A DNA stretch of 20,745 bases from the IMG/VR virus record IMGVR_UViG_3300043773_000511, positions 1-20,745 of that record; one strand, written 5' to 3'. This stretch comes from a virus. The position numbers and the translations under genes were made by a program. Positions 1-20,745 of this stretch are shown here, in pieces (position 1 is the stretch's first letter; every line of letters starts with the position of its first letter). The notes under the pieces are model-generated. The model made no database searches, had not been told where the DNA came from, and was given only the letters and a program-made list of their open reading frames with translations.

Positions 1-81
1 ATGGACTTGCATTGCCATCGGCCTTATCACGAACAGGAAAGGCCCATGATGCGTATTCTTGAAATCGCTGAGATGATCTGA
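1..81 (+). CDS. C-terminal end of an unidentified upstream protein (partial)
   Basis: Frame 1 is open from the window edge to a TGA at 79-81 and encodes about 26 residues ending in EIAEMI. The stop overlaps the next start (TGATG), the same coupling used between the following genes, which is the main reason to read this as the tail of a real gene. The reading frame probably began before the window, so the ATG at position 1 need not be the start. The fragment is too short to assign a function. Its position suggests it belongs to the sugar-phosphate module that follows. Confidence 0.5.
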   Translation: MDLHCHRPYHEQERPMMRILEIAEMI

Positions 82-1487
82 TGGCATTCATCTGCATATC
101 CGGCAGTTCGGGTGTGGGAAAGACCACGATATCGACTTTGATGCAGTCGGTATTGGGTGCGGAGAATTGCACCACTCTGAGCGGAGATGATCTACACAGA
201 TGGGAAAGAACAAGTCCCGTGTGGAAGATCAAAACTCACTTGGATCCAGAAGAGAACGACTTGGAGCGAGGCTATGCTGACATACGGGCTCTCATGGACG
301 GCAAAACCATCGAACGGAGAAAGTACAACCACGACACGGGAATATGGGATTCTCCAATTTTGGTTCAACCAAGGGAACATGTTCTGTACGAAGGGCTTCA
401 TGCCCTGTACCACATTCCGACCTATAGCCTTGCTGACCTGACGATCTTTGTTGATACGGATGATACGCTGAAGACCGAGTGGAAGGTGAAGCGAGATACG
501 AAGAAGAGGGGCTACACGGAAAGCCAAGTTCTTGAAACGATGAAGAGGCGAAAGAAGGACGAGGAATTGTACATCACGCCGCAGAAAGAGAGAGCGGATG
601 TGGTGGTGAAGTTCACGAAGGGAAGGGACGGATCGATATCGCTAGAGTACATCTCTGTGAACGGCAAGGGAATTGCATTGATGGACAGGATGAAGGAATT
701 CTACGATTCTCTTCGGGATTACATGAATCTCTGCAAGTGGATATCGCTTGATCCTTCCTTAGTACAGGGACCGGGAGGAAATGTTTCCGTGAAGTCAAAG
801 AGCGGAATCATTATCAAGTCATCAGGTGCGAGAATGTCCGATGTAAATCTACATCACGGATTCAGTCTTTGTGACATAGATGGGGACTTTCCTGAATTTC
901 AGTCGGAGGAGGAATACACGGAGTTCGTTCATCGTTCACGGAAAATGGGCAGCAGGCCATCTATGGAAACAGGATTCCATGTAGTGTTGCCCGAGCGAGT
1001 GGTAGTACATACGCATCCTATCCATCTCAATGCCATCCTTTGCAGCAAGGAGGCTAGGGGAACCATCAGGGACATCTTCCACGATCTTTCATACGATTTC
1101 ATTGAATACACAAGACCCGGCATGATGCTCACCAACAGGTTGATAGAAGACATGCCAGCGAACATCATATTTCTAGAGAACCACGGACTGATCGTGTGTT
1201 CCGAAAGCCCGCAGGAGGCATTGGAGACAACCGAAAGAATAAACAACCGATGCAAGAGATGGCTTGCTAATCATGTTGAGTCTTTCGTTGATCTTGAAGA
1301 TTGCAAGCAAGAATCTCTGCCACTTTTCCCCGATGCTGCCGTCTTGCCTGATGAAATGCGCTCAACCAACAACTACATACTTGGTCTGCTGAATGCAGCC
1401 TGTCTATCTCCGAATTACCTTTCGGAGGAAGAGGCAACGGCACTCAACTCAATGATTTCAGAAAAGTATAGGAAGGCTATAGCATGA
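81..1487 (+). CDS. Fused P-loop (uridine kinase/phosphoribulokinase-like) kinase and class II aldolase
   Basis: This 468-residue protein joins two enzymes. Residues 1-200 form a P-loop kinase of the uridine kinase/phosphoribulokinase type: Walker A GSSGVGKTT at 8-16, GDD at 35-37, YEGLHAL at 103-109, KRD..KRG around 138-144 and a YITPQ segment near 164-168 that is typical of the family. Residues 215-460 form a class II aldolase/adducin fold: a glycine-rich phosphate loop GPGGNVS at 230-236, SMETGFH at 294-300, the zinc-binding HTH at 310-312 and ENHGL at 366-370 with His368. Known families of this kind phosphorylate small sugars or polyols and cleave or epimerise ketose phosphates. The substrate cannot be read from sequence. 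The start follows the upstream stop directly, and the stop overlaps the nucleotidyltransferase start (ATGA), so the genes are translated together. A combined kinase-aldolase is unusual in a phage. Confidence 0.85.
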   Translation: MAFICISGSSGVGKTTISTLMQSVLGAENCTTLSGDDLHRWERTSPVWKIKTHLDPEENDLERGYADIRALMDGKTIERRKYNHDTGIWDSPILVQPREHVLYEGLHALYHIPTYSLADLTIFVDTDDTLKTEWKVKRDTKKRGYTESQVLETMKRRKKDEELYITPQKERADVVVKFTKGRDGSISLEYISVNGKGIALMDRMKEFYDSLRDYMNLCKWISLDPSLVQGPGGNVSVKSKSGIIIKSSGARMSDVNLHHGFSLCDIDGDFPEFQSEEEYTEFVHRSRKMGSRPSMETGFHVVLPERVVVHTHPIHLNAILCSKEARGTIRDIFHDLSYDFIEYTRPGMMLTNRLIEDMPANIIFLENHGLIVCSESPQEALETTERINNRCKRWLANHVESFVDLEDCKQESLPLFPDAAVLPDEMRSTNNYILGLLNAACLSPNYLSEEEATALNSMISEKYRKAIA

Positions 1488-2829: not shown

Positions 2830-4251
2830 ATGACTTCTGATCGAATCGAAACCCTTGTACTTCGTTCGCTGATTCACGATGATGAGTTCGCTCGTCGGGC
2901 TTTGCCGTTCATCAAGCCCGAGTACTTCATGGATCGAAACGAGAAGGTGGTCTATGAAACCATCCACTCGTTCATCACTACCTATAACAAGACTCCTACC
3001 GCAGAATCACTCTGCATCGACCTATCGAACCGTGATGGACTTTCCGAAGAAGAGTTCAAGCAGGCAAAGAAGGTAATCGAAGAGATCGCGGAGTACAACA
3101 AGCCCGACACAGACTGGCTTGTCAAAAGCACCGAGAAGTTCTGCCGGGACAAGGCCATCTACAATGCCATCATGGAGTCGATTCAGATCATCGATGGCAA
3201 GGGCAATAAGACACAGAACGCCATTCCCGAGATTCTATCTGATGCCTTGGCTGTTTCGTTCGACACACACATCGGCCATGACTTCATCGATGACCACAAC
3301 GAACGGTACGACTTCTACCACAAGATCGAACGGAAGATGCCGTTTGACCTTGAATACCTGAACAAGATCACTCAAGGAGGTGTACCGAGCAAGACACTCA
3401 ATGTCATCCTCGCGGGCACGGGTGTGGGCAAGAGCCTCTTCATGTGCCATCATGCCGCCCAATGCCTTATCGGTGGGAACAATGTCCTGTACATCACCTG
3501 TGAGATGGCAGAGGAGAGGATCGCAGAACGCATCGATGCCAATCTCATGGACATCTCCCTTGATGACCTGAAGAAGTTGCCCAAGGACATCTACACCCGA
3601 AAAATGCAGAGGATCATGTCCTCCACTTCATCGAAGTTGATCATCAAGGAGTATCCCACAGCAACGGCAAATGCTATGCACTTTGAACACCTGTTGGATG
3701 AACTGCGGCTGAAGAAGAACTTCAAGCCCGATATCGTGTTCATCGACTATCTCAACATCTGTGCATCAAGTCGCTTCAAGGCTAACTCCAATGTGAACTC
3801 CTACACTTATGTCAAGGCGATTGCCGAGGAACTTCGTGGCATGGCCGTCAAGTACGATGTTCCCATCTTCACGGCAACACAGACCAATCGCGAAGGGTTC
3901 GGAAACAGCGATGTGGAACTCACCAACACAAGCGAGTCCTTCGGTCTTCCCGCCACGGCTGACTTCATGGTTGCCCTGATTTCCACCGAGGAACTTGAGG
4001 AACTTGGACAGTTGATGGTAAAGCAGTTGAAGAATCGATATGGTGACCCGTCAAGTAACAGGCGATTCGTTGTCGGTGTTGACCGCAGCAAGATGAAGTT
4101 GTTTGATTTGGATGCCTCCGCACAGCAAGGCATTTCTAAAATGGGCGATGCCGAGAAGGACGAGGAGCAGGAACAGGGAGGATTCAGGACTTTCCGTCAG
4201 CGGATGGAGGACAAGTTTGTCAAGAAGAATAATTTCGATGACTGGTCTTGA
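2830..4251 (+). CDS. 41: Replicative DNA helicase, T4 gp41 / DnaB family
   Basis: This 473-residue protein (T4 gp41 is 475) is a RecA-fold hexameric helicase of the DnaB group. It moves 5'-3' on the lagging strand and works with the primase encoded at 14858. The N-terminal domain (residues 1-150) has the helical DnaB-like opening. Walker A is AGTGVGKS at 195-202, Walker B is DIVFIDYLN starting at 301, and an ATQTNREG segment matches the later conserved helicase motif. The C-terminus is charged and ends in NFDDWS, which could bind a loader or primase. The ATG at 2830 sits seven bases after a sigma70-like -10 box. An upstream start is excluded because no in-frame start precedes it in the promoter. 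The gene ends inside the -35 region of the next promoter. Confidence 0.93.
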   Translation: MTSDRIETLVLRSLIHDDEFARRALPFIKPEYFMDRNEKVVYETIHSFITTYNKTPTAESLCIDLSNRDGLSEEEFKQAKKVIEEIAEYNKPDTDWLVKSTEKFCRDKAIYNAIMESIQIIDGKGNKTQNAIPEILSDALAVSFDTHIGHDFIDDHNERYDFYHKIERKMPFDLEYLNKITQGGVPSKTLNVILAGTGVGKSLFMCHHAAQCLIGGNNVLYITCEMAEERIAERIDANLMDISLDDLKKLPKDIYTRKMQRIMSSTSSKLIIKEYPTATANAMHFEHLLDELRLKKNFKPDIVFIDYLNICASSRFKANSNVNSYTYVKAIAEELRGMAVKYDVPIFTATQTNREGFGNSDVELTNTSESFGLPATADFMVALISTEELEELGQLMVKQLKNRYGDPSSNRRFVVGVDRSKMKLFDLDASAQQGISKMGDAEKDEEQEQGGFRTFRQRMEDKFVKKNNFDDWS

Positions 4252-4795: not shown

Positions 4796-4869
4796 GGGGC
4801 GAGGGGGTCTTTGGTTGGCCCAGGAGAGTTTATACCTCTCTGGCGCAGGTTCGAATCCTGATCGCCCTA
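4796..4869 (+). tRNA. tRNA-Ile (anticodon UAU), divergent
   Basis: A 74-base cloverleaf can be folded by hand. The acceptor stem is 4796-4802 with 4862-4868 (7 pairs, one G:U). The D stem GGGT/GCCC has a GG in its loop. The anticodon stem GAGAG/CTCTC is perfect, around loop TTTATAC at 4829-4835 (anticodon TAT, A at position 37). The variable loop has 4 bases. The T stem has four pairs plus one mismatch around TTCGAAT. The discriminator is A4869, and CCA is not encoded. Position 8 is G and position 14 is C instead of U and A, and there is one extra base between the D and anticodon stems, so a covariance score may be modest. The anticodon reads AUA. Confidence 0.75.
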
Positions 4870-4876
4870 CTTGACG

Positions 4877-5387: not shown

Positions 5388-5395
5388 GATAAATA
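5388..5395 (+). promoter_or_regulatory. T4-type late promoter GATAAATA, leaderless geometry
   Basis: GATAAATA ends at 5395, exactly six bases before the ATG at 5401. By T4 late-promoter geometry transcription would start at 5401, the A of that ATG. A purine-rich GGGGGAAAGG at 5379-5388 would be a Shine-Dalgarno site for an in-frame ATG at 5395, but only on transcripts from further upstream. Confidence 0.65.
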
Positions 5396-5400
5396 TGACC

Positions 5401-6648
5401 ATGATAAGGACTTTCTCAAGCCTGATCGAAGAGCGGCAACCCGTCATGGAGGCGGTGCAGTCGCAGCATCTTGATCACCTTGAGGACTTGATCTTTTTGG
5501 ATGGAGGGGTAAAGAAAGCCACCGAAATCCTTAAGAATCTGGTGAAGTCCTTGGCTTCAGCCACCCCTACGGCAAAGATGGTCATCACCACGAAGTGGGA
5601 TGGGGCACCGGCAATAGTGGCAGGAATCCACCCGGCAACTAAGAAGTTCTTCGTGGCACTCAAGGGAGCAACCCTTTCTGCCAATCCCAAGATTTGCTAT
5701 ACACAGGCAGACATCAACCGGGAGTATGGAGACAAGGCGGAACTTGCATCCAAACTTTCAGTTTGCCTGAAGAACCTTCCCTCCGTGTTGCCTGCAAAGG
5801 GAATCTATCATGGGGACTTGCTCTTCACAGACAACAAGAAGATCGCCACAATTGACGGTACATCTATGGTGACTTTCCGACCAAACACGATCATGTATGC
5901 CGTTCCTGCTGACAGCCCAATGGGAGTGAAGATAAAGGCTGCAAAGATGGGAATCGTATTCCATACGCAGTACACGGGCACGGGCAAGGAACTCAAGGAT
6001 CTGTCCAAGTCTCCCCTTTCCTCGCTGCAAGGGTTCAAGCAGACAACTGCCGTATGGTTCACGGGTGCCACTTTGCCGTCCCCGCCATCAGGATCAACCT
6101 TCCTCACGGCAAGCAACGCCAAGCAGATAGTTGACCTTATTGGATTGATTGCGGCATCGGCAACCCAAGTCAACTCATTTCTCAAGATTGTGAAGAAGTC
6201 CCACGAAAAGGACATCTACGCAGAACTGATGCCCTTCATCAATTCGGGGGTTCGGGCAGGAATTTCAAAATACGATTCCGCCAAGTTGAAGGTGTTCATC
6301 GAAGGTAAATACAATGCAGCAATCGCGAAGTTGAAGACACAGACAAAGATAGCAGAGAAACAAAACGACAAGAAGAAGGCAATTGCCTTCATCGATGCAT
6401 ACGCAGGGCAGTTTGATCAGTTGTTCAAGGTTCACTCGTTGGTGTCGGAAGCAAAGATGGTGGTAATCAGCAAGTTGTCTGAAGTAAAGACGATAGGAAC
6501 ATACTTGCCAACCGCATCCGGCTTGAAGGCAACCAATCCCGAAGGATTCGTTGCCGTGTGTGGAAAGACTTGTTCAACCATCAAGTTGATAGACAGATTG
6601 GTGTTCGCAAACGCAAACATGAACATAACCAAGGATTGGAAGAAATGA
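5401..6648 (+). CDS. KWDG-motif protein, predicted ligase-like covalent nucleotidyltransferase (DUF6267-like)
   Basis: A 415-residue protein. Residues 64-71 read TKWDGAPA. K-x-D-G is motif I of DNA/RNA ligases and capping enzymes, where the lysine (here Lys65) takes up the nucleotide. Further segments fit the same fold: FFVALKG, GIYHGDLLF, a TFRPNTIMYAVP strand and the GIVFHTQYTG block. From memory this matches a family of unknown function common in T4-type phages (probably DUF6267). No activity is known to me. The first residues MIRTFSSLIEE resemble the T4 internal-protein capsid tag. ATG 5401 is chosen from the late-promoter distance. ATG 5395 (417 residues) is the alternative. The stop overlaps the next start (ATGA), linking it to the large fusion protein. 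An RNA or DNA end-modifying role is an inference. Confidence 0.75.
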   Translation: MIRTFSSLIEERQPVMEAVQSQHLDHLEDLIFLDGGVKKATEILKNLVKSLASATPTAKMVITTKWDGAPAIVAGIHPATKKFFVALKGATLSANPKICYTQADINREYGDKAELASKLSVCLKNLPSVLPAKGIYHGDLLFTDNKKIATIDGTSMVTFRPNTIMYAVPADSPMGVKIKAAKMGIVFHTQYTGTGKELKDLSKSPLSSLQGFKQTTAVWFTGATLPSPPSGSTFLTASNAKQIVDLIGLIAASATQVNSFLKIVKKSHEKDIYAELMPFINSGVRAGISKYDSAKLKVFIEGKYNAAIAKLKTQTKIAEKQNDKKKAIAFIDAYAGQFDQLFKVHSLVSEAKMVVISKLSEVKTIGTYLPTASGLKATNPEGFVAVCGKTCSTIKLIDRLVFANANMNITKDWKK

Positions 6649-9600
6649 AAACCTTCTCGGAAGCAACAAAGAACTTCAAGCCAAAGGGCAAGTCCGTAGT
6701 AGTGGCTGTTGGGAGGTTCAATCCCCCCACCACAGGGCATGAACTTCTTCTCAAGAAGGTCAAGGAAGTGCAGTCTGCAAAGGGTGCCGATGCTCATGTC
6801 ATCTACTACAGTTATTCCAACGATCCTAAGAAGAATCCCCTGACTGCGGCGCAGAAAGCCAAGTATCTCAAGCAATTCTTCCCCGGCTACAAGTTCAAGC
6901 AGATGCCCAAGCCTTCGGCAAAGGGTTCGGGTGTATATGCCTGTATGCAGGAGTTGAGCGACCAAGGCTACACACAGGTTTATGTTGTGACCGGTGCCGA
7001 TCACATGACGGAATACCAACTTGTCAAGAAGTACATCAAGAAGACCCCGACACAGAAGGACGGGTACAACTTCAGCAAGTACGAGATAATCAGCGCAGGA
7101 GAGCGTGATCCCGATTCTGAGGGAGTGGTCGGCATGTCTGCAAGCAAGATGCGTAAGGCCGCATTCGATAAGGACATCAAGACCTTCATGACGGGCATTC
7201 CTTCAGGAGTTTCCAAGACGGTAGCAAAGCAGATGTACAATGATGTCCGCAAGGGAATGAGCCTAAAGGAAGAGGTGATCGTAGAGGAAACCAAGACACC
7301 CGTGACGATCATCGCTCTCACTTCAAGCATGGAAGAGAGCGAGAAAAGCACAATCGGAAAGATGGAGGAAGCCTGCAAGAAGTACAAGGTGAACTTCCAT
7401 CCGATCCGCATCAAGACCGCCACCATCAACATCGCCAAGGCAAGTCCCGACAAGATCACCATAGAGAACTTCGATGGCGAAGGAAATGATGTCACCATCA
7501 TCCCGAACCAGACCCTGTGCGTTGTCCGTGGTGGCACGATGAACAGCGAAGTCGGCATTGCCCTCCTCATGTTGTTGCAGAACAACGGCGTATTCATGGT
7601 GAACGAACGAGGCGGCATGGATCTGTGTGCAAACAAGTTGCAGACTGCCATCACGCTAAAGCGACACAACATTCCTCACCCAAAGACTGCATTCGTCGCA
7701 GATGCTGAATCCATTCCCGATGCCCTGAAGCAGATCGGAGGGAAGTTCCCCGTCATCGTCAAAACCCTGACGGGAGCGGAGGGAATTGGCGTATCGATCA
7801 TCGAAAGCGAAAAGTCACTTGTGTCCGTGCTGCAAAGCCTGTGGAAGTACGGTGCCGAGATCATTCTTCAGGAATTCATTCCCGGCTTCACCCATGATGT
7901 CCGAAGCATCTGTCTCAACGGCAAGATTTTCGCATCTGCCAAGCGAGACAAGGCCAAGGGAGACTTCAGAACGAATATTGCCCGTGGTTCAAAGGGCGGT
8001 TCATTCGAACTATCTGAGGACGAGATCAAGTTGGTGGAAACCGTGGCGAGGGTTTCCAAGTGCTACTATGTCGGAGTCGATCATGTGGTCGCTGGTGGAA
8101 AGCCTTACATCATAGAGATGAATGCGAGCCCCGGAAGCGGAAATGTCTACACTCTGTATGAGGACGGAAAGCCGACAAAGGATGTTGATGGCGATGAACT
8201 TGTCGAAGAACTCGTCAAGCACCTGTCCAACAAGCAGAATTGGAAGTTGTTCAGTTCCGTCGCGGTGGTCGAACCAATAAAGGTCGCAGGCGAGGAATTC
8301 TACGGCAAGGTGGATACGGGCAACAGCGGTTACAACTCAATCCATGCCACGGACATTAAGATCAACGAGAAGAACCACACAGTCACCTTCAAGTTCAATG
8401 GCGAGAAGGAGATGACCAAGCCCATACAGAGCCGTATTCGTCTTCGCCATGGTTCTTCCAAGGAAGAGGCAGTCCGTCCGACTGTCCTGTTTGATGTTGA
8501 ATTTAATGGCAGGGAATTCAAGAATGTCAAGTTCAGTCTTGCCGACAGAAGCCACATGAACTACAAGGTTCTTCTTGGTCTTCGTTTCCTCGTTCAGGCC
8601 GGTGTCATGGTCGATCCCAAGGACATGTCGGCTTCGAAGACGAAGATCGATGAGGAGAAACTTGCCATGCAAGGCAAGGAAATGAAGAGTCACCTTGACG
8701 GTCTGATTTCAAAGATCAGGGAAAAGCATGGAAGCACAAATGTGACCTATTCGCAGGCTATGAAGATCGTAGGTGCGACAGGTGCTGCTCGTCTTGCTGC
8801 CCGTGGAATGATTAAGCGTGACAGCGGCAAGAAGGAAAAGGGAGAACTTGGCAAGGAATCCGTGGAGGAATCCAAGTACACAACCAAGACCGGAAAGGCC
8901 GTGTCTCCTGCAAGAGACACGAAGGCCGACTTGCCGAAGAAGTATGTCGCTGGCCTGAGCAAGACGCAGAAGGCAAAGCGAAAGGCACAATTTGACAAGC
9001 GCAAGGACATTCCCGACAGCGATCCCCGTGCATGGAAGAAGTTGCCGGGTGATCCAAAGGAAACCAAGAGAAAGTCCAAGTACACTCAATTGTTTGCCAA
9101 GAAGTTTGGGAAGAAGGTTGAAGAGGCAATCGATCAATTGATGAAGATCGATTCACTCTCCATCCCCATGTCGGAAAAGGTCGAACGAGTCAGGGAATAC
9201 CAATCCAAGTTGCAGACGAAGGAAGAAAGAGACATCTGCACGGTCTTTATTGAAGTCGTCAAGAACGAGATGTACGAACCATATTCCAACATCAAGACAA
9301 CCTTGGACGAGGATTTCGAGTGGATGATGTACAACAGTACGGATTCAGAGTCCACGGCAAGAATCATTAAGAAGAAGTTGCAGGAAGTTCTTGAAATCGG
9401 AACCAACGAAATCGTCAAGGCGTATTCCAAGATGACTCCGGGGCAGAAGTACTACACCGAGGACAAGGCCAAGGAAGAGCAGGATGCCCTTTACAAGGAA
9501 TGGGAAAAGTTGGTCAACATGGGTCCAAAGGAGTTGGAGTCCTTCATCGATTCAGATGAGGGCGAAGAAGCAGGACTTTCCCGCAAGGAGGCTTCCAAAG

Positions 9601-9830
9601 CAGGAGCCAAGGGCGGAAAGATCAAGTCCGGACGAGACTCGGCCCGTGCCATTGTACGCATGTTGCAGACCAAGAAGAAGGATTGGACACCCAACGATTG
9701 GGAATGGGCACGAAGACAGGTCAATTTCATCACACGCATGAAGGGAGCCCAAGGACCGATGCGTGACGAAAAGGGTCGCCCAACAAGGAAACTTCTGGCT
9801 CTGAAGATTTGGGGCCACAACCCGGAATAA
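6645..9830 (+). CDS. Fusion of NMNAT-like nucleotidyltransferase, RimK-like ATP-grasp ligase and RimB-like aspartic protease
   Basis: A 1061-residue multidomain protein. Residues 15-205 form a HIGH-type nucleotidylyltransferase, with GRFNPPTTGH at 23-32 and ISAGERD plus GMSASKMR (149-170) in the place of the NadM/NMNAT ISSTxxR motif. Residues 218-530 form a RimK-like ATP-grasp: KTLTGAEGIGV at 373-383, LQEF at 408-411, DVR at 418-420 and IIEMNASPGSG at 489-499. Residues 535-660 match the retropepsin-like protease paired with RimK: GKVDTGN at 554-560 (Asp557) and LADRSHMNYKVLLG at 632-645. Residues 740-830 are basic. The C-terminus (995-1061) is a phage-type block with SGRDSARAIV and LKIWGHNP. 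The pieces suggest amino-acid ligation to a protein, its reversal, and NAD- or nucleotide-linked chemistry. The true substrates are unknown. ATG 6645 overlaps the preceding stop. The opening MKTFSEA resembles the T4 capsid tag. Confidence 0.85.
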   Translation: MKTFSEATKNFKPKGKSVVVAVGRFNPPTTGHELLLKKVKEVQSAKGADAHVIYYSYSNDPKKNPLTAAQKAKYLKQFFPGYKFKQMPKPSAKGSGVYACMQELSDQGYTQVYVVTGADHMTEYQLVKKYIKKTPTQKDGYNFSKYEIISAGERDPDSEGVVGMSASKMRKAAFDKDIKTFMTGIPSGVSKTVAKQMYNDVRKGMSLKEEVIVEETKTPVTIIALTSSMEESEKSTIGKMEEACKKYKVNFHPIRIKTATINIAKASPDKITIENFDGEGNDVTIIPNQTLCVVRGGTMNSEVGIALLMLLQNNGVFMVNERGGMDLCANKLQTAITLKRHNIPHPKTAFVADAESIPDALKQIGGKFPVIVKTLTGAEGIGVSIIESEKSLVSVLQSLWKYGAEIILQEFIPGFTHDVRSICLNGKIFASAKRDKAKGDFRTNIARGSKGGSFELSEDEIKLVETVARVSKCYYVGVDHVVAGGKPYIIEMNASPGSGNVYTLYEDGKPTKDVDGDELVEELVKHLSNKQNWKLFSSVAVVEPIKVAGEEFYGKVDTGNSGYNSIHATDIKINEKNHTVTFKFNGEKEMTKPIQSRIRLRHGSSKEEAVRPTVLFDVEFNGREFKNVKFSLADRSHMNYKVLLGLRFLVQAGVMVDPKDMSASKTKIDEEKLAMQGKEMKSHLDGLISKIREKHGSTNVTYSQAMKIVGATGAARLAARGMIKRDSGKKEKGELGKESVEESKYTTKTGKAVSPARDTKADLPKKYVAGLSKTQKAKRKAQFDKRKDIPDSDPRAWKKLPGDPKETKRKSKYTQLFAKKFGKKVEEAIDQLMKIDSLSIPMSEKVERVREYQSKLQTKEERDICTVFIEVVKNEMYEPYSNIKTTLDEDFEWMMYNSTDSESTARIIKKKLQEVLEIGTNEIVKAYSKMTPGQKYYTEDKAKEEQDALYKEWEKLVNMGPKELESFIDSDEGEEAGLSRKEASKAGAKGGKIKSGRDSARAIVRMLQTKKKDWTPNDWEWARRQVNFITRMKGAQGPMRDEKGRPTRKLLALKIWGHNPE

Positions 9831-9835
9831 TTCAA

Positions 9836-10102
9836 ATGCAAAGATTCAAAAACTACATCTCCGAAGACAAGCCAGCCGCACATACATCCTTGGAGAAGAA
9901 GTCCAAGGCTTCAGGCATCCCTTACCGCTTCCTCAAGCAAGTCTATGACCGTGGAGTGGTCGCATGGAAGGGAGGCCATAGGCCGGGGGCTGGCCCCGAG
10001 CAATGGGGTCTGGCAAGAGTCAACAGTTTCATCGTCGGCGGCAAGACTCGTCATACCGCCGATGCAGACATTTGGAAAAAGTACAAGGGCAGCAAGCGTT
10101 AA
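9836..10102 (+). CDS. Small GHRPG-motif phage protein (DUF5824-like)
   Basis: An 88-residue protein with the core GIPYRFLKQVYDRG followed by AWKGGHRPG and WGLARVNSF. I recognise this pattern from a widespread small phage family of unknown function (from memory, DUF5824). It starts five bases after the preceding stop, with a weak upstream purine signal, so it is probably translated by coupling to the fusion protein. It begins MQRFKNYISED, another MxxF...E opening like the T4 capsid-targeting tag. The many conserved His, Arg and Trp residues could form a nucleic-acid-binding or catalytic site, but nothing in the sequence decides this. Confidence 0.75.
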   Translation: MQRFKNYISEDKPAAHTSLEKKSKASGIPYRFLKQVYDRGVVAWKGGHRPGAGPEQWGLARVNSFIVGGKTRHTADADIWKKYKGSKR

Positions 10103-14846: not shown

Positions 14847-14857
14847 TTCCGAACCAC

Positions 14858-15898
14858 ATGAGCAACTACATCGACAGCAAGTACATCAACATCATCTCCC
14901 CTAGGCTGCAACGCTTTGGGTGGAAGAAGCAGAGCCTTGCTGTCTGTCGATGCCCCATCTGTGGAGACAGCCAGAAGTCCAAGAGCAAGACGAGGTTCTA
15001 CTTCTACGAGAAGAAGGGCGGATTCTTCGTCCGTTGCCACAATTGCGACTATGGCACCACCTTGGGGAAGTTCATCGAATACATCGATCCGTTCGTGTAC
15101 AAGCAGTACATGCTTGAGAAGTACCGTGATGGTCTTGAGGGTCGCCATGACGGAAAGGCCGATGCCGAGAAGCAGTTCAAGTTTGAAAAGCCCGTGTTCG
15201 AAAGCAAGCGCAGGGAACTTCTGCTTGAATCCCTTGAGCCCTTGACCGATCTGCCCGATGACCACAAGGCGGTGGAATTCGTCAGGAACCGAAGGATTCC
15301 CGTGGAGCAATGGGAGAGGCTTTACTTCACGGAGGACTTTGGGTGGTGGGCCAAGCAAGTCGATCCCGAGATCGAATCCCCTCCCGACGAGCGGTTGGTC
15401 ATTCCAATCATGCGTGGCAATCGATTGGTTGCAGCACAGGGAAGATCGCTGTCTTCCACGGCTTCCGGCAGGATCATTCGCTACATCACCATCAAGCGAG
15501 ACAAGGACTTGCAGTCCATCTGGTTCGGCTTGGAGCGCATCGACAAGACCAAGCCCGTGATTGTGGTCGAAGGACCGCTCGATTCGCTGTTCCTTCCCAA
15601 CTGCGTGGCAATGCTTGGAGCAAAGCACATCGGTGAACTGCCTGCGGAACTTGAGGGATGCAACATTACCTTTGCCCTTGACAATGAGCCAAGGAACAAG
15701 GAAGTGGTGGGAATTTATCAAAAACTCGTGGAAGACGGATACCGTGTCTGCTTCTGGCCTGAGAACATTCGGGTGAAGGACATCAACGACATGGTGATTG
15801 CAGGACACGAACCCAAGGAAATTGAAAGAACGATACGGGAAAATTCGTCAAGTGGGCTGATTGCCAGACTGAAACTGTCCACATGGCGGCATACATGA
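14858..15898 (+). CDS. 61: DNA primase, T4 gp61 family
   Basis: A 346-residue protein (T4 gp61 is 342) that makes RNA primers for lagging-strand synthesis in complex with the helicase at 2830. A zinc-binding domain is visible at the N-terminus: CPIC at residues 32-35 and CHNC at 60-63. The TOPRIM catalytic core has VVEGPLDS with Glu238 and Asp242, and FALDNEP with Asp275 and Glu277 as metal ligands. The open frame extends 15 codons upstream to 14813, but those codons run through the -35 and -10 boxes, so ATG 14858 is the start. There is no Shine-Dalgarno site. The stop lies one base before the next late-promoter octamer. Confidence 0.93.
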   Translation: MSNYIDSKYINIISPRLQRFGWKKQSLAVCRCPICGDSQKSKSKTRFYFYEKKGGFFVRCHNCDYGTTLGKFIEYIDPFVYKQYMLEKYRDGLEGRHDGKADAEKQFKFEKPVFESKRRELLLESLEPLTDLPDDHKAVEFVRNRRIPVEQWERLYFTEDFGWWAKQVDPEIESPPDERLVIPIMRGNRLVAAQGRSLSSTASGRIIRYITIKRDKDLQSIWFGLERIDKTKPVIVVEGPLDSLFLPNCVAMLGAKHIGELPAELEGCNITFALDNEPRNKEVVGIYQKLVEDGYRVCFWPENIRVKDINDMVIAGHEPKEIERTIRENSSSGLIARLKLSTWRHT

Positions 15899-17416: not shown

Positions 17417-18871
17417 ATGGCCAAATTCCGAGACTTCATAGGCAAGGAACCCGATCCCGAAGGGTTGGAAGAACTGTACAAGGAATTTCAGGAGTTCATG
17501 GAGGCTCCTGAGCCGGATGTAGTCTCGTCTGCAACATCCAAGCAAAAAATCCGAGTAGTGAGGGGTTCACCCGGCCCGAAGGGCGAAAAGGGTGACAAGG
17601 GAGACACCGGCGAACGGGGTCTTCGTGGTTTGCGTGGAATCACAGGCCCAAGGGGCGAAAGAGGTGACCGTGGCGAGAAGGGCGACAAGGGCGAGCGTGG
17701 CGAAAAGGGTCCGCAGGGCGAAAGAGGTCCGCAAGGCGAGGTCGGCCCCCGTGGGGAAAAAGGAAGTGACGGGAAAGCGGGTGCCCAAGGCACACCTGGA
17801 CCCCAAGGTCTTCGTGGCGAAAAAGGTGACAAGGGAGACAGAGGAGAAGCAGGGCCGCAAGGACTGAAGGGGGTTGCTGGTCCCAAGGGGGACAAGGGAG
17901 AGAAGGGCGATGTAGGCCCACGGGGTATCGCTGGCCCCAAGGGAGACAAAGGAGATAAGGGCGATAAGGGAGACAAGGGTGAGCCGGGTCTTCAGGGAAT
18001 CGCCGGAGTCGCGGGAGCCAAAGGAGAGAAGGGTGCTGTTGGTCCAGTTGGTCCGCAGGGCAAGCGTGGTTCCAAGGGACAAAAGGGTGACCGTGGAGAA
18101 AAGGGCGAGAAGGGTGATGTTGGTCCTGCCGGTCCACAAGGTGAGAAGGGTGCCACGGGAGACTCTGGCGTTCTTCATGCAATCTATCCACTCAAGTACG
18201 ATCCCAAGTCAAAGACACTCAAGGTAGACCTTACCAACCTGAATCGCGGAACCACCGTACTGGGCAATCCCGGCGGCGGAATGGGTGAAGCATTCAAGTT
18301 CGTTGAAGTCGCAGGACAGCCCGGTCTTACTGCCATCCAGTATCAGGCAGAGACTCTTCGGTTCGATGCAGGCAACAATGTACAACTGATCACCAACCCT
18401 GCGACGAACAGCATAACCATATCCTCTTCGGGCACGAACTTCTTCTATCAGCCCGATCCCCCGACATCGGGATTCACCGCCGGTTCACGATGGATGGATT
18501 CGGATGATGGACAGGAGTACATCTACATCAATGACGGCAACACGCAGCAATGGGTGCAGCCCACGGTGAATCCTGCAATGGTGGTTGCCGTGACATCGGT
18601 AACGGGAAGCACATACCTAGCCACGGGTAGGGATCACTACATCGGTGTCAACGCAACCGGACCCGTGACGATAACTCTTCCTTCCCTGCCGTTCACGGGA
18701 AGGGAAATCATCGTCAAGGATGAGTCGGGTCGGGCAGGAGAGCCTTATCGATACATCACCATAGTCGGTGCAACGGCGGCAGACACGGTTGACAACCAAG
18801 AGTCCGCAACCATCAATCTAAATAACGCAGGACTGCATTTCATATACAACAATGGGTGGAGAATAGTATGA
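17417..18871 (+). CDS. Collagen-like tail-fibre or virion surface protein
   Basis: A 484-residue protein. Residues 1-49 (MAKFRDFIGKEPD...) are a helical head. Residues 50-251 are about 67 uninterrupted Gly-X-Y triplets, dominated by charged GEK, GDK, GER and GPQ units that stabilise bacterial-type collagen helices without hydroxyproline. Residues 252-484 are beta-rich, with segments such as PVTITLPSLPFTGREIIVKDESG and [19 protein letters not shown] typical of phage fibre tips. A homotrimeric fibre with a rod and a receptor-binding or trimerising tip is the likely form. The start follows a late promoter by seven bases. The coding end contains another late octamer (18817) and overlaps the next start by four bases. 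Opposite-strand open frames here are side effects of the Gly-X-Y repeats. Confidence 0.88.
   Translation: MAKFRDFIGKEPDPEGLEELYKEFQEFMEAPEPDVVSSATSKQKIRVVRGSPGPKGEKGDKGDTGERGLRGLRGITGPRGERGDRGEKGDKGERGEKGPQGERGPQGEVGPRGEKGSDGKAGAQGTPGPQGLRGEKGDKGDRGEAGPQGLKGVAGPKGDKGEKGDVGPRGIAGPKGDKGDKGDKGDKGEPGLQGIAGVAGAKGEKGAVGPVGPQGKRGSKGQKGDRGEKGEKGDVGPAGPQGEKGATGDSGVLHAIYPLKYDPKSKTLKVDLTNLNRGTTVLGNPGGGMGEAFKFVEVAGQPGLTAIQYQAETLRFDAGNNVQLITNPATNSITISSSGTNFFYQPDPPTSGFTAGSRWMDSDDGQEYIYINDGNTQQWVQPTVNPAMVVAVTSVTGSTYLATGRDHYIGVNATGPVTITLPSLPFTGREIIVKDESGRAGEPYRYITIVGATAADTVDNQESATINLNNAGLHFIYNNGWRIV
18817..18824 (+). promoter_or_regulatory. T4-type late promoter TCTAAATA inside a coding region
   Basis: TCTAAATAAC lies within the last 55 bases of the collagen-like gene, using a CTA leucine codon. 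A start near 18830 would give a leader of about 38 bases with GGTGGAG at 18854-18860 as the Shine-Dalgarno site for ATG 18868. Confidence 0.5.
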
Positions 18872-20103
18872 GTTACCTTTTCAACGATCAAGTGCAATTC
18901 AAGGGAAATGCAGTAGATGCCTTCAACCGATTGAAAGTCTCTGCACCTTTCACGCTTTTCGACAGCCAGAATCGCTATCAGATGAACGACAAGTGGGACA
19001 CATTCGGTGCCACCGGAGGTACTGCCACATTCGCAGTACTTGAAAGCGCCATCAACATGACCGTGGGAACAACGGCAGGAAGCAAGGTCACACGGGAAAC
19101 CAAGAGGGTGTTCCCCTACCAACCCGGCAAGTCCCTGCTCGTCCTCAACACCTTTGCAATGAACACTCCCAAGGATGGTCTGTTGCAGCGGGTAGGGTAT
19201 TTCGGCATCACGGGAGGGGCGACCGCATCCGTTCCCTTCAATGGCATCTACTTGCAGCAAGACGGGCTCACGATGTCCATGTGCTTGGCTAGTGCGTCAC
19301 TTGGCAACACAATCACGGTCAATCAGTCAAATTGGAATGGAGACAAGTTCGATGGAAACGGAGAGTCGGGAAGGACTCTTGATCCAACCAAGGGAAACAT
19401 AATGTGGATGGACATTGAATGGCTCGGTGTCGGTGATGTGAGGACAGGGTTCATTGTAGATGGACGGCCAATCGTTGCCCATACATTCCACAACGACAAC
19501 CTGAATCCAACGACCTACATGACAACGGCGATATTGCCGATTCGGTATGAACTGATGAATACCAAGGGGCAGACCGGAAGCAGCACGATGAAGCAGATAT
19601 GCTCATCCGTGATAAGCGAGGGTGGATATGAAGGATTCAGCCGCAGACACAATGTCACCCATAACGGAGCAACCCTAAAGACCCTGACCACGGCGGGGGT
19701 GCAGTATCCGATCATCGCACTTCGACTCAATTCCAATCGGCTCGACAGCGTTGTGGTTCCTTCCAACATCAATGCCGTGATTCAGGAAACCAGCAACAAC
19801 AAGCCCAACACGGCACAGTATCGCATACTGTTCAACCCATCGATAAGCGGCGGTTCATGGGTCACCCACTACAACGGAAATGTTGACTACAACAACACAA
19901 TGGCAAGCATAACTGGTGGAACCGACATCATAGGCGGATACATCAGCAGCAGCGGATCTTTGGTAATATCGGATGTCAATGACTTCAATTTCCAAATCGG
20001 AAGAACCCAACTTGGAGTTAGCGATGTGATCGTGTTCACCATGACACCAATCTATGATGGTGCAAAGATATGCGCTGACTTCTCTTGGTTTGAGATCATC
20101 TGA
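18868..20103 (+). CDS. Conserved phage structural protein
   Basis: A 411-residue beta-rich protein of a family I recognise from many phages as an unnamed structural protein. It opens with [20 protein letters not shown] and goes on with [65 protein letters not shown] and [11 protein letters not shown], which come in the usual order for that family. ATG 18868 is chosen over the upstream in-frame ATG at 18856 because it follows a Shine-Dalgarno site and forms an ATGA overlap with the collagen-like gene. The last stop overlaps the next start (TGATG). The three-gene run suggests one fibre or baseplate assembly. Confidence 0.85.
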
Positions 20104-20745
20104 TGCCCTTGGACTTTCCGTCGAATCCCTTCCTAAACCAGGTCTATGCTGCCAATGGCAAGGCTTGGCGATGGAACGGAGCCGCATGGGAGACACACAA
20201 CGCATCCCTTACGGTTGATTATGTCTCGGACATTAACGGCATATCCGGCAGCGTATCACTCACGGCTGGTGCAAATGTAACCATCACGAAGTCGGGACAG
20301 ACCCTGACAATTGCGTCTAGCGGAGGCGGCGGTGGAGGAACAGGAAGCGGCGCAAATGGTGCCACAGGAGCAACAGGTGCTACTGGTCCTGTGGGTGCCA
20401 CAGGTCCGCAGGGTGCTACTGGTTCCACGGGTCCGCAGGGTGCCACGGGTACACAAGGCCCAACAGGCCCACAGGGTGCAACGGGTACACAAGGCCCAAC
20501 AGGCCCACAGGGTGCAACAGGTCCTCAAGGAGAAATTGGCCCTCAAGGCATTCAGGGTGAAAGTTTTTACTTTAGAGGCCCTTACGGTGGTTCAGAGATT
20601 GTTTATAATCTCAATGATGTAGTTACATTCATTGGCAATTCTTATATTTGTTTAACTAATGGTCTTACTGGCTCTCAACCAGATTCTTTAGTGGGTTGGG
20701 ATGTATTTGTAGAAAAGGGTTCAACTGGCTCAACAGGAGACACTG
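20103..20745 (+). CDS. Second collagen-like fibre protein (5' part, runs off the window)
   Basis: The frame starts at ATG 20103, overlaps the previous stop by one base, and stays open for 214 codons to the window edge. Residues 1-35 ([24 protein letters not shown]) are a common phage fibre opening in which a short Trp-rich unit probably attaches to the virion. A serine/glycine-rich spacer [12 protein letters not shown] is followed by Gly-X-Y triplets rich in Thr, Ala, Pro and Gln ([23 protein letters not shown]), unlike the charged triplets of the 17417 protein. A beta-type domain follows ([20 protein letters not shown]), then a second collagen-like stretch starts at the edge. From about 20555 the DNA becomes clearly A/T-richer. 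Confidence 0.85.
20445..20516 (+). repeat. Exact 36-base tandem repeat, two copies
   Basis: 20445-20480 and 20481-20516 are identical over 36 bases, each beginning ACGGGTACAC. Each copy encodes 12 residues, [12 protein letters not shown], so changes in copy number would lengthen or shorten the collagen rod in frame. Confidence 0.92.

What the first reader, a model, noticed from the sequence alone, without database searches (positions are those of the whole stretch)
6645..9830. One polypeptide joins an NMNAT-like transferase, a RimK-like ligase and its partner protease
RimK-type ligases add glutamate or similar residues to protein ends, and the RimB-type protease is thought to counter or trim this. 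Here both are fused in order behind a nucleotidyltransferase of the NadM/NMNAT type and ahead of a phage-specific tail. Adding and removing a tag, plus NAD-type chemistry, in one phage protein would be a self-contained host-protein-modifying machine. I know of no described function for this architecture.
Basis: partly seen in the sequence, partly recalled or inferred. Interest (0 to 1): 0.8.

Follow-up and report, generated by a model that had tools for sequence, protein, structure and literature searches.

The report
Likely phage-packaged enzyme precursor
A T4-like virus of bacteria strings a nucleotide-transfer enzyme, a glutamate-adding enzyme and the matching glutamate-removing protease into one protein that looks like a precursor packed into the virus head, cut up there, and injected into the host with the viral DNA.

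Summary
Window 6645-9830 (+) encodes 1061 aa with an NMNAT/PPAT-fold domain, a complete RimK domain, a RimB (PF05618) domain and a phage tail; catalytic residues are kept in 32 of 32 aligned sequences. RimK followed by RimB (DUF785) in marine phages was predicted in 2008 (PMC2530865), so that part is known. New here: most relatives, fused or separate, begin with a T4-type capsid-targeting leader ending in a prohead-protease-like site ([LI]xE|A). Such a site recurs at the NMNAT-RimK junction, and one relative has the enzymes as separate genes with such leaders. In cyanophage S-CREM2, with a published virion proteome, 4 of 206 called genes have a strict leader and all 4 are on the virion list, including the NMNAT homologue. 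Best reading: a head-packaged, gp21-processed precursor delivering separate enzymes at injection, RimK-RimB then adding and trimming glutamate on host proteins. Against: the window's own leader (MKTFSE|A) fails the strict test, no cleavage was measured, substrates are inferred. It works like T4 internal head proteins but is not filed as one.

The parts
5395..6648 (+). DUF6267 gene; leader MTMIRTFSSLIEE|R, similar to a head-targeting leader; its stop overlaps the next start (ATGA)
   Evidence: Pfam DUF6267 E 4e-89; start region read; loose leader match; relatives L110 and L112 start MFSFRQITE|I and MLRFKQYLAE|A
6645..9830 (+). NMNAT-RimK-RimB-tail precursor, 1061 aa
6645..6662 (+). leader MKTFSE|A: shortened, atypical head-targeting leader (most relatives: ...[LI]xE|A)
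   Evidence: 43 of 60 distinct relatives have the [LIV]xE[AGSDE] leader; the window and its MKTF[SL]E group do not
6687..7271 (+). NMNAT/PPAT-fold nucleotidyltransferase domain (GRFNPPTTGH; SASKMR)
   Evidence: PHROG cytidyltransferase E 1.3e-58; fold Z about 12, tie of PPAT, NMNAT, NadD; G31, H32, R170 in 32 of 32
7257..7328 (+). linker 1 with predicted prohead-protease site IVE|E (after residue 214)
   Evidence: 60 of 60 distinct relatives have [LIV]xE[ADEQ] here; 18 of 18 representatives with [LIV]xE[ADE] against a shuffle mean of 4.1, maximum 10; residues 208-217 have pLDDT under 50, in a model with 363 such residues
7299..8249 (+). RimK-type ATP-grasp glutamate ligase domain, complete with N-terminal domain
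   Evidence: Pfam E 6.7e-31; profile against 7qyr E 1.9e-41; Z 28.1 against 7qys; residues 295, 373, 420, 442, 444, 448, 479, 491, 493 invariant in 32 of 32
8250..8630 (+). RimB-type retropepsin-like domain (DTG at residues 557-559)
   Evidence: Pfam PF05618 E 5.8e-10; 9g58 E 1.3e-9; 2pma Z 14.1; DTG in 32 of 32 and 35 of 35
8631..9827 (+). phage-specific tail built of small modules (half of DUF5824, DUF3140, DUF6321); in 29 of 47 relatives it begins with a run of 5-8 Glu, not in the window
9836..10102 (+). small DUF5824 gene with a canonical 10-residue leader MQRFKNYISE|D; the same piece is fused to the cytidyltransferase in phrog_3041
   Evidence: DUF5824 E 3.6e-18; strict leader; phrog_3041 positions 611-676 of 678
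2830..4251 (+). flank: gp41-type replicative helicase
   Evidence: phrog_19 E 1.9e-130; the same neighbour in syn9 and S-PM2
14852..15898 (+). flank: gp61-type primase
   Evidence: phrog_47 E 3.5e-76; the same neighbour in syn9

Best explanation
The gene encodes a precursor of injected enzymes in a T4-like phage. Step 1 (inferred from leaders and from a homologue detected in virions): an N-terminal capsid-targeting leader brings the chain into the prohead core. Step 2 (inferred from conserved sites): the prohead protease gp21 cuts after [LIV]xE at the leader and at the NMNAT-RimK junction, and perhaps at the RimB-tail junction, releasing a nucleotidyltransferase, a RimK-RimB enzyme and tail pieces inside the head. 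Step 3 (by analogy with T4 Alt and the internal proteins): they enter the cell with the DNA. [quoted passage not shown] The NMNAT-fold enzyme makes or restores a dinucleotide cofactor; which one is open. Step confidences: domain identity 0.97; packaging of this family 0.8; cleavage into separate enzymes 0.6; glutamate chemistry 0.6; host translation as target 0.35.
For: Leaders: T4 ipII and ipIII begin MKTYQEFIAE|A. Of 57 distinct NMNAT homologues (from 78 loci), 39 have NMNAT within 60 residues of the ORF start; 30 of these 39 have [LIV]xE within 21 residues before the domain, against a shuffle mean of 12.0, maximum 23, and random downstream windows with mean 11.1, maximum 20. RimK-RimB ORFs in 86 loci gave 38 distinct 26-residue starts among those not open at the 5' end; 4 of these begin at one internal Met (MTVAI...); of the other 34, 33 have [LIV]xE[ADEGSV] in the first 24 residues, e.g. 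MQVSKFKDYITE|A. In the fused family 12 of 18 representatives have [LIV]xE[ADE] in the leader (shuffle mean 1.1, max 6) and 18 of 18 at linker 1 (mean 4.1, max 10). Gene splitting: L112 has DUF6267, RimK-RimB and NMNAT as three adjacent genes, each with a site-bearing leader. Virion evidence: in S-CREM2 the strict leader picks 4 of 206 called genes, all among the 50 called genes that match the mass-spectrometry list, Fisher p 0.003; one is the cytidylyltransferase MKNFSSFLTE|AD, 29.7% identical to the window's NMNAT domain, 3 unique peptides. The RimK-RimB protein of Yersinia phage YerA41 is annotated 'structural protein'. Machinery: the 177-kb contig carrying an identical copy of the gene encodes gp21 (E 2.5e-36), gp22 and gp23. 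Genome-wide strict leaders: 5 in G001 against shuffle mean 0.42, 7 in G002 against 0.34. A site at residue 6 has a parallel in T4 Alt, whose first [LI]xE is MELITE|L. Enzymes.
Against: The window's own leader MKTFSE|A has F at the third position before the cut and E at residue 6 instead of 10; it is not a strict hit, and 17 of 60 distinct relatives lack the [LIV]xE[AGSDE] leader. The strict pattern itself fits only 2 of the 4 T4 proteins ipI, ipII, ipIII, Alt (sequences). One of the 5 strict hits in G001 looks spurious, and the shuffle maximum there was also 5. The bare [LIV]xE pattern is common in helices: a control segment inside RimK has it in 18 of 18, and the window protein has 25 [LIVF]xE positions in all. 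For fused DUF6267-NMNAT proteins 9 of 13 have the site, but shuffles give a mean of 5.9, maximum 12, so this is not significant; of 5 with a medium-length leader 1 has it. Site density in the tail is not above shuffles (16 against 12.9, 4 representatives). With a loose leader pattern S-CREM2 shows no enrichment (5 of 14, p 0.23), and 46 of its 50 virion genes lack the strict leader. YerA41's protein has no such leader; nor do the RimK-only proteins of S-RIM8 and S-RIM12. The S-CREM2 authors warn that such proteins may be contaminants of the preparation. The purified bacterial RimBK hybrid showed protease but no ligase activity on Pseudomonas S6. The gene lies between replication genes, not among late genes. 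Relatives are related, so counts are not independent events.
Confidence: 0.6

Rival explanations
1. A single uncut multi-enzyme protein that works inside the infected cell (made with the replication genes), not a virion protein; the leaders and linker sites are only amphipathic, acidic linkers.
For: The gene sits between the gp41 and gp61 replication genes; the window's own leader is atypical; RimK-only proteins of S-RIM8 and S-RIM12 have no leader, so some phage RimK proteins probably act unpackaged.
Against: Leader motif far above shuffles in separate sets and in 33 of 34 usable RimK-RimB starts; a leader-bearing NMNAT homologue detected in S-CREM2 virions; a passage citing NMNAT-like proteins in the virions of S-CBWM1, S-SZBM1 and S-SCSM1.
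Confidence: 0.2
2. RimK-RimB acts on the phage's own head or core proteins during assembly, building or trimming acidic tails that help the core or DNA packing, rather than on host proteins.
For: 29 of 47 relatives carry a run of 5 or more Glu right after RimB; in G002 the only other called protein with such a run lies between gp21 and gp23, the place of the gp22 scaffold (not scanned for family there); RimB cuts internal 8-Glu runs (PMC11957791), so self-cutting at this run is conceivable.
Against: The window's own phage (G001) has no such runs in any called protein; the run in G002 is gene-encoded, not shown to be added. Packaging by itself does not decide between host and phage targets.
Confidence: 0.12
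3. The RimK-like ligase makes a small molecule or modifies a nucleotide (for example an amino-acid conjugate used for DNA hypermodification or a cofactor), working with the NMNAT-fold enzyme.
For: RimK homologues work in coenzyme biosynthesis in Methanocaldococcus (mentioned in PMC11957791); YerA41, which has RimK-RimB, has modified DNA that resisted sequencing (PMC7354516); next-best solved relatives are LysX/ArgX.
Against: By profile the best solved relatives are RimK glutamate ligases, E 1.9e-41 against 8.3e-22 or weaker for LysX/ArgX; a fused RimB peptidase points to peptide substrates; the window-type phages were assembled from ordinary metagenomes, so their DNA can be sequenced (inference).
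Confidence: 0.15
4. The main function is NAD restoration against NAD-depleting defence, and RimK-RimB is a passenger.
For: NMNAT fold; phage NAD-restoring pathways are in print (search listing only).
Against: NAPRT/NAMPT-family gene in 0 of 5 related contigs (fragments possible); substrate of the domain unresolved; the RimK region is the most conserved part of the protein.
Confidence: 0.1

Closest known systems
Phage T4 internal head proteins (IPI, IPII, IPIII, Alt)
   Same: targeting leader of the MKTYQEFIAE|A type in most relatives, gp21-type protease in the same genome, in T4 brought into the head and injected (T4 facts from PMC9026906 passages; leaders read)
   Different: here the cargo is a chain of three enzyme domains and small modules with a further candidate cut between them; the window's own leader is shortened and fails the strict test
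Putative phage RimK with C-terminal DUF785 in ocean metagenomes (PMC2530865)
   Same: the same RimK-then-RimB order in phage-like contigs; the authors already suggested modification of the host translation apparatus (passages)
   Different: no NMNAT fusion, head-targeting leader or processing is mentioned in the passages seen
RimABK system of Pseudomonas and the RimBK hybrid of Desulfotalea (PMC11957791, PMC10092738)
   Same: RimK and RimB folds and catalytic residues; functional pairing
   Different: in the bacterial hybrid RimB is N-terminal; cellular enzymes
Polyvalent proteins of phages and conjugative elements (PMC5512222)
   Same: several host-directed enzyme domains in one polypeptide, predicted to be delivered with the DNA; the authors draw an operational analogy with polyproteins (passages)
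   Different: their predicted processing is by embedded zincin-like peptidases and they typically lie near late genes; RimK is not mentioned in that paper's main text (0 occurrences); here the predicted cutter is the prohead protease in trans
Virion NMNAT/cytidylyltransferases of cyanophages (S-CREM2 and others, PMC10665884)
   Same: homologous enzyme in the virion, with the leader
   Different: stand-alone; the passages and section seen do not mention a targeting leader

Membership tests
RimK alpha-L-glutamate ligase | RimK ATP-grasp domain with N-terminal domain and RimK fold | tested here: met
RimK alpha-L-glutamate ligase | poly-Glu contact residues R64, R189, N262 of P. aeruginosa RimK (here R295, R420, N493) | tested here: met
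   alignment, residues named in PMC10092738; invariant in 32 of 32 in A1; R295 in 34 of 35 and the other two in 35 of 35 in A3
RimK alpha-L-glutamate ligase | further poly-Glu contacts S7, R8, S14, S68 of P. aeruginosa RimK | not tested
   no aligned column was measured; by eye the LTSS segment (residues 225-228) has no Arg
RimK alpha-L-glutamate ligase | transfers glutamate to a protein C-terminus | not testable with these tools
   needs an assay
RimB / PF05618 retropepsin-like peptidase | family match, fold and catalytic DTG | tested here: met
   DTG in 32 of 32 and 35 of 35
RimB / PF05618 retropepsin-like peptidase | cuts poly-Glu | not testable with these tools
   needs an assay
NMNAT (NMN/NaMN adenylyltransferase) | nucleotidyltransferase fold with [HT]xGH and SxxxxR motifs | tested here: met
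   TTGH and SASKMR read in sequence; G31, H32 and R170 in 32 of 32; motif names recalled
NMNAT (NMN/NaMN adenylyltransferase) | specificity for NMN or NaMN rather than phosphopantetheine or other substrates | tested here: inconclusive
   PPAT, NMNAT and NadD tie at Z about 11-12
T4-type internal head protein | IPII/IPIII-like targeting leader (start, x, x, [FY], xxx, [LI], x, E) at the N-terminus of the window protein itself | tested here: not met
   MKTFSE|A; a looser [LIV]xE[AGSDE] leader is met in 43 of 60 distinct relatives, not in the window; the strict form also misses T4 ipI and Alt
T4-type internal head protein | gp21-type prohead protease in the same phage | tested here: met
   G001 Peptidase_S77 E 2.0e-37
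T4-type internal head protein | present in the mature virion | not testable with these tools
   no proteome of this phage; homologue detected in S-CREM2
Polyvalent protein | several enzyme domains, predicted to act on the host, in one polypeptide | tested here: met
Polyvalent protein | embedded zincin-like peptidase (a common theme of the class, not universal) | tested here: not met
   none in the Pfam scan at E up to 1; the embedded peptidase is RimB-like

The most novel reading that the evidence does not exclude
Aquatic T4-like phages carry a phage 'polyprotein': one gene for several take-over enzymes, sent into the prohead by a targeting leader and cut apart there by the prohead protease (with the embedded RimB perhaps cutting at the neighbouring poly-Glu run where there is one), so that a glutamate ligase-protease pair and a nucleotidyltransferase are already inside the host when the DNA arrives. 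The leader then becomes a general in silico tag for injected enzymes in marine T4-like phages.
Probability: 0.45. Interest if true: 0.8.

Novelty: new variant of a known kind. Interest (0 to 1): 0.62.

Why it matters
It turns a puzzling domain fusion into a testable delivery system. The strict leader may pick out enzymes that a phage injects: in S-CREM2 it pointed only at proteins on the virion list (4 of 4). It suggests that protein glutamylation, described so far as a bacterial regulation of ribosomes, is used at the first moment of infection by phages whose stand-alone RimK-RimB genes are common in marine viral contigs (221 relatives of the Mosig protein matched), and that a head protease can double as a polyprotein processor.

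Tried and rejected
NARP2-like NAD pathway: searched for NAPRT/NAMPT (PF04095), 0 of 5 related contigs, controls 6 of 14; not pursued. DUF6267 as a solved fold: no significant sequence relative in the PDB (best E 0.1); it looks ligase-like to my eye (KxDG, recalled motif), untested. NMNAT domain against PDB by sequence: best E 0.45. Full-length structure: poor (pLDDT 59.1), so only its better parts were read; A1, on which it rests, holds the window and 31 of the 47 references listed. Tail: sites not above shuffles, hence no claim of cutting within the tail. Cellular origin: the scan of species genomes gave 69 loci; I looked at 7 of them: L275-L279 and L281 look phage-like by their neighbours, by eye; L316 (Dojkabacteria) looks cellular, with a DTG downstream of the ligase match. 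I built no tree. The fused DUF6267-NMNAT junction was dropped as statistical evidence (9 of 13, within shuffles). RimK-only phage proteins: Melnitz has a leader (TTG start), S-RIM8 and S-RIM12 do not. The terms RimK and ATP-grasp do not occur in the main text of the Melnitz paper. YerA41's supplementary table was not read; its virion status for this protein rests on the record's annotation. Literature searches behind 'not seen in print': (open-licence PMC only, ranked and partly cut lists); none listed a phage NMNAT-RimK-RimB precursor or a leader on these enzymes, but most listed papers were not opened.

Choices made after seeing data: the leader pattern was first seen by eye; the strict form was fixed with [FY] at position 4 in the first 60 codons, and for S-CREM2 widened to [FYL] and limited to the first 35 codons; the widening adds one of the four hits. 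The S-CREM2 gene list is my own ORF calling (206 genes, of which 50 match the 52 listed virion proteins), not the deposited 219 CDS. Dropped rows: L057, L058 and L061 (motif too narrow; back), L019 and L032 (cut at the 5' end) and L072 (broken frame). In one search, 4 loci already in the first set were dropped and 17 near-duplicates merged (78 to 57); one of the 39 (L182) is cut at its 5' end and may be a fused form; L119, L120 and L122 have a site just outside the 21-residue window and count as misses. The relatives are the best 80 of 221.
Full report
What is there. The reading frame at 6558-9830 (+) is open; the conserved start is ATG 6645, overlapping the stop of the DUF6267 gene. The 1061-aa product holds an N-terminal nucleotidyltransferase domain, a complete RimK ligase, a RimB-type retropepsin-like domain and a tail with pieces of DUF5824, DUF3140 and DUF6321. 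The window is a fragment of a T4-like phage: an identical copy of the protein lies in a 177-kb contig (L004/G001) that encodes gp23, gp22 and gp21. Neighbours are a gp41-type helicase and a gp61-type primase, the same setting as the cytidyltransferase gene in cyanophage syn9 and, on the gp41 side, S-PM2.

Are the domains real? RimK: Pfam E 6.7e-31; profile match to Pseudomonas RimK 1.9e-41, to E. coli RimK about 1e-35, to LysX/ArgX only 8.3e-22 or weaker; the predicted structure (pLDDT 84.3) aligns with RimK at Z 28.1 (rmsd 2.6, 288 aligned). RimB: PF05618 E 5.8e-10, RloA 9g58 E 1.3e-9, 2pma Z 14.1 (rmsd 2.8, 112 aligned) in the weak full-length model. NMNAT: PHROG E 1.3e-58, fold Z about 12 with PPAT, NMNAT and NadD tied. 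Key residues are invariant in 32 of 32 aligned sequences (window included): G23, R24, N26, P27, P28, T29, G31, H32 of NMNAT, the RimK residues corresponding to R64, R189 and N262 of P. aeruginosa RimK, and DTG of RimB. In the deeper RimK-RimB alignment (35 sequences, down to about 28% identity) DTG is in 35 of 35.

What the relatives show. One search gave 76 viral loci; sequences over 900 aa run from 958 to 1299 aa, and L008 is complete at 782 aa. More distant loci show other arrangements: NMNAT alone or behind DUF6267; RimK-RimB alone in contigs related to pelagiphage Mosig (221 relatives matched, the best 80 kept) and in Yersinia phages YerA41 and GN1; and, in L112, DUF6267, RimK-RimB and NMNAT as three adjacent genes. 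The small DUF5824 gene downstream in the window matches the C-terminal end of phrog_3041 cytidyltransferase, so this piece too is fused in some phages and separate here.

The leader. T4 IPII and IPIII begin MKTYQEFIAE|A; according to PMC9026906 (passages) residues 4 and 7 of the IPIII leader matter for targeting, 8 and 10 for cutting. The same shape stands in front of these enzymes: MKKFSAFLSE|A (syn9 cytidyltransferase) and PFKNYLEE|A (Mosig RimK-RimB), both; MSKSYQQFLKE|T (NMNAT of L112); KFSQFITE|E (Melnitz RimK); MQRFKNYISE|D (window gene 9836-10102). Counts: 30 of 39 distinct near-N-terminal NMNAT leaders against a shuffle mean of 12.0, maximum 23; 33 of 34 usable RimK-RimB starts; 12 of 18 representatives of the fused family against a mean of 1.1, maximum 6. 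Genome-wide the strict form occurs 5 times in G001 (shuffle mean 0.42, maximum 5; one hit looks spurious) and 7 times in G002 (mean 0.34, maximum 3). The window's precursor is not among the 5 in G001; its relative in G002 is among the 7. The strict form fits ipII and ipIII of T4 but not ipI or Alt, so it under-calls; Alt has a candidate site at residue 6 (MELITE|L), as the window protein does (MKTFSE|A).

A check against measured virions. S-CREM2 has a published virion proteome (PMC10665884, section 18 read whole). With my own ORF calling, 4 of 206 genes carry the strict leader: SAM hydrolase, a small protein, the APH/ChoK-like kinase and the cytidylyltransferase. All 4 are on the virion list (50 of 206 called genes are; Fisher p 0.003). 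The cytidylyltransferase, MKNFSSFLTE|AD, is 29.7% identical to the window's NMNAT domain and was identified with 3 unique peptides. The authors caution that such proteins may be carried over rather than packaged. A loose form of the pattern gives no enrichment (5 of 14, p 0.23), and 46 of the 50 virion genes, structural ones mostly, lack the strict leader.

The junction. Between NMNAT and RimK, 60 of 60 distinct relatives have [LIV]xE followed by A, D, E or Q, and all 60 still have one when the first, constant L[KNST]E is masked; forms include YIPE|A, LLNE|A, FVAE|A, and IVE|E in the window. 18 of 18 representatives have [LIV]xE[ADE] against a shuffle mean of 4.1, maximum 10. The window's linker has pLDDT under 50 (residues 208-217), in a model where 363 of 1061 residues do. 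Control: the bare [LIV]xE is equally universal in a RimK helix (18 of 18), where [LIV]xE[ADE] is in 6 of 18 with a shuffle mean of 3.7; so the claim rests on place and following residue, not on the bare pattern. Relatives are related, so counts are not independent events. After RimB, 29 of 47 relatives have 5 or more Glu in a row, most followed by LSE or similar; RimB of Pseudomonas cuts internal Glu runs (PMC11957791), so self-cutting there is possible. The window's subgroup lacks the run. In the tail, sites are not above shuffles.

How it most likely works. Shown here: domain identity, conservation, leaders and junction sites, gp21 in the same genome. Inferred: packaging of this protein, cutting by gp21, injection, glutamate transfer to host proteins. 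RimB in P. fluorescens both removes glutamate from S6 and stimulates RimK (PMC11957791, abstract and passages), so a tethered RimB could act as regulator as much as antagonist. The D. psychrophila RimBK hybrid showed protease but no S6 ligase activity, a warning about the target.

What is known and what is new. Phage RimK with C-terminal DUF785 was described from ocean metagenomes in 2008, with the idea of modifying host translation (PMC2530865, passages). Multi-domain 'polyvalent proteins' predicted to be delivered with the DNA are a known class (PMC5512222, passages). The general idea that leaders let T4-like phages load various proteins is in PMC9026906. I found no account of the NMNAT-RimK-RimB chain, of leaders on phage RimK or NMNAT, or of a prohead-protease-cut enzyme precursor in the searches, which cover open-licence papers only. 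It works like a T4 internal head protein; it is not filed as one, because the window's own leader fails the strict test and virion presence was not measured.

Weak points. The window's own leader, MKTFSE|A, is not canonical, so this member is among the least well supported of its family for leader cutting. Nothing was measured on this phage. The host is unknown. Substrates of both enzymes are open.

Noticed in passing
window 17417-18871 and 20103-20744: Collagen-repeat proteins (GXY runs), the first with Pfam Collagen E 9.5e-36, the second read by eye; probably tail-fibre related.
   Followed up: no
window 81-1487: Fusion of a PRK/uridine-kinase-type domain with a class II aldolase domain, followed by a MobA-like nucleotidyltransferase: possibly a sugar-nucleotide cassette.
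   Followed up: no
window 4796-4870: tRNA-Ile with anticodon TAT.
   Followed up: no
OR473000 (L271-L274): In S-CREM2 the virion-listed SAM hydrolase, APH/ChoK-like kinase and a small protein also start with strict targeting leaders, and the Cas9-annotated virion protein has a similar segment (LRFASFMAE|A) near its start: leaders may mark injected enzymes generally.
   Followed up: partly
L281 (Clostridia genome bin, phage-like): Three proteins begin with M(M)(L/I)KKFSEFI(A/T)E|GMWGSAL, a leader-like family in a contig that also has a RimK-like gene.
   Followed up: no
L100:8493-11687 (-), contig G002: A protein of about 1065 aa with several [LI]xE|A sites near its start and no Pfam match; possibly another processed head protein.
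   Followed up: no
L275-L279: RimK-RimB loci filed under Parcubacteria, Saprospiraceae, Thaumarchaeota, Sphingobacteriales and Alphaproteobacteria bins look like phage contigs, judging by neighbouring genes by eye.
   Followed up: partly
window 5395-6648: DUF6267 contains KWDGAP and EGFVAV segments that look like a nucleotidyltransferase/ligase active site (motif recalled); a PDB sequence search gave nothing significant.
   Followed up: partly
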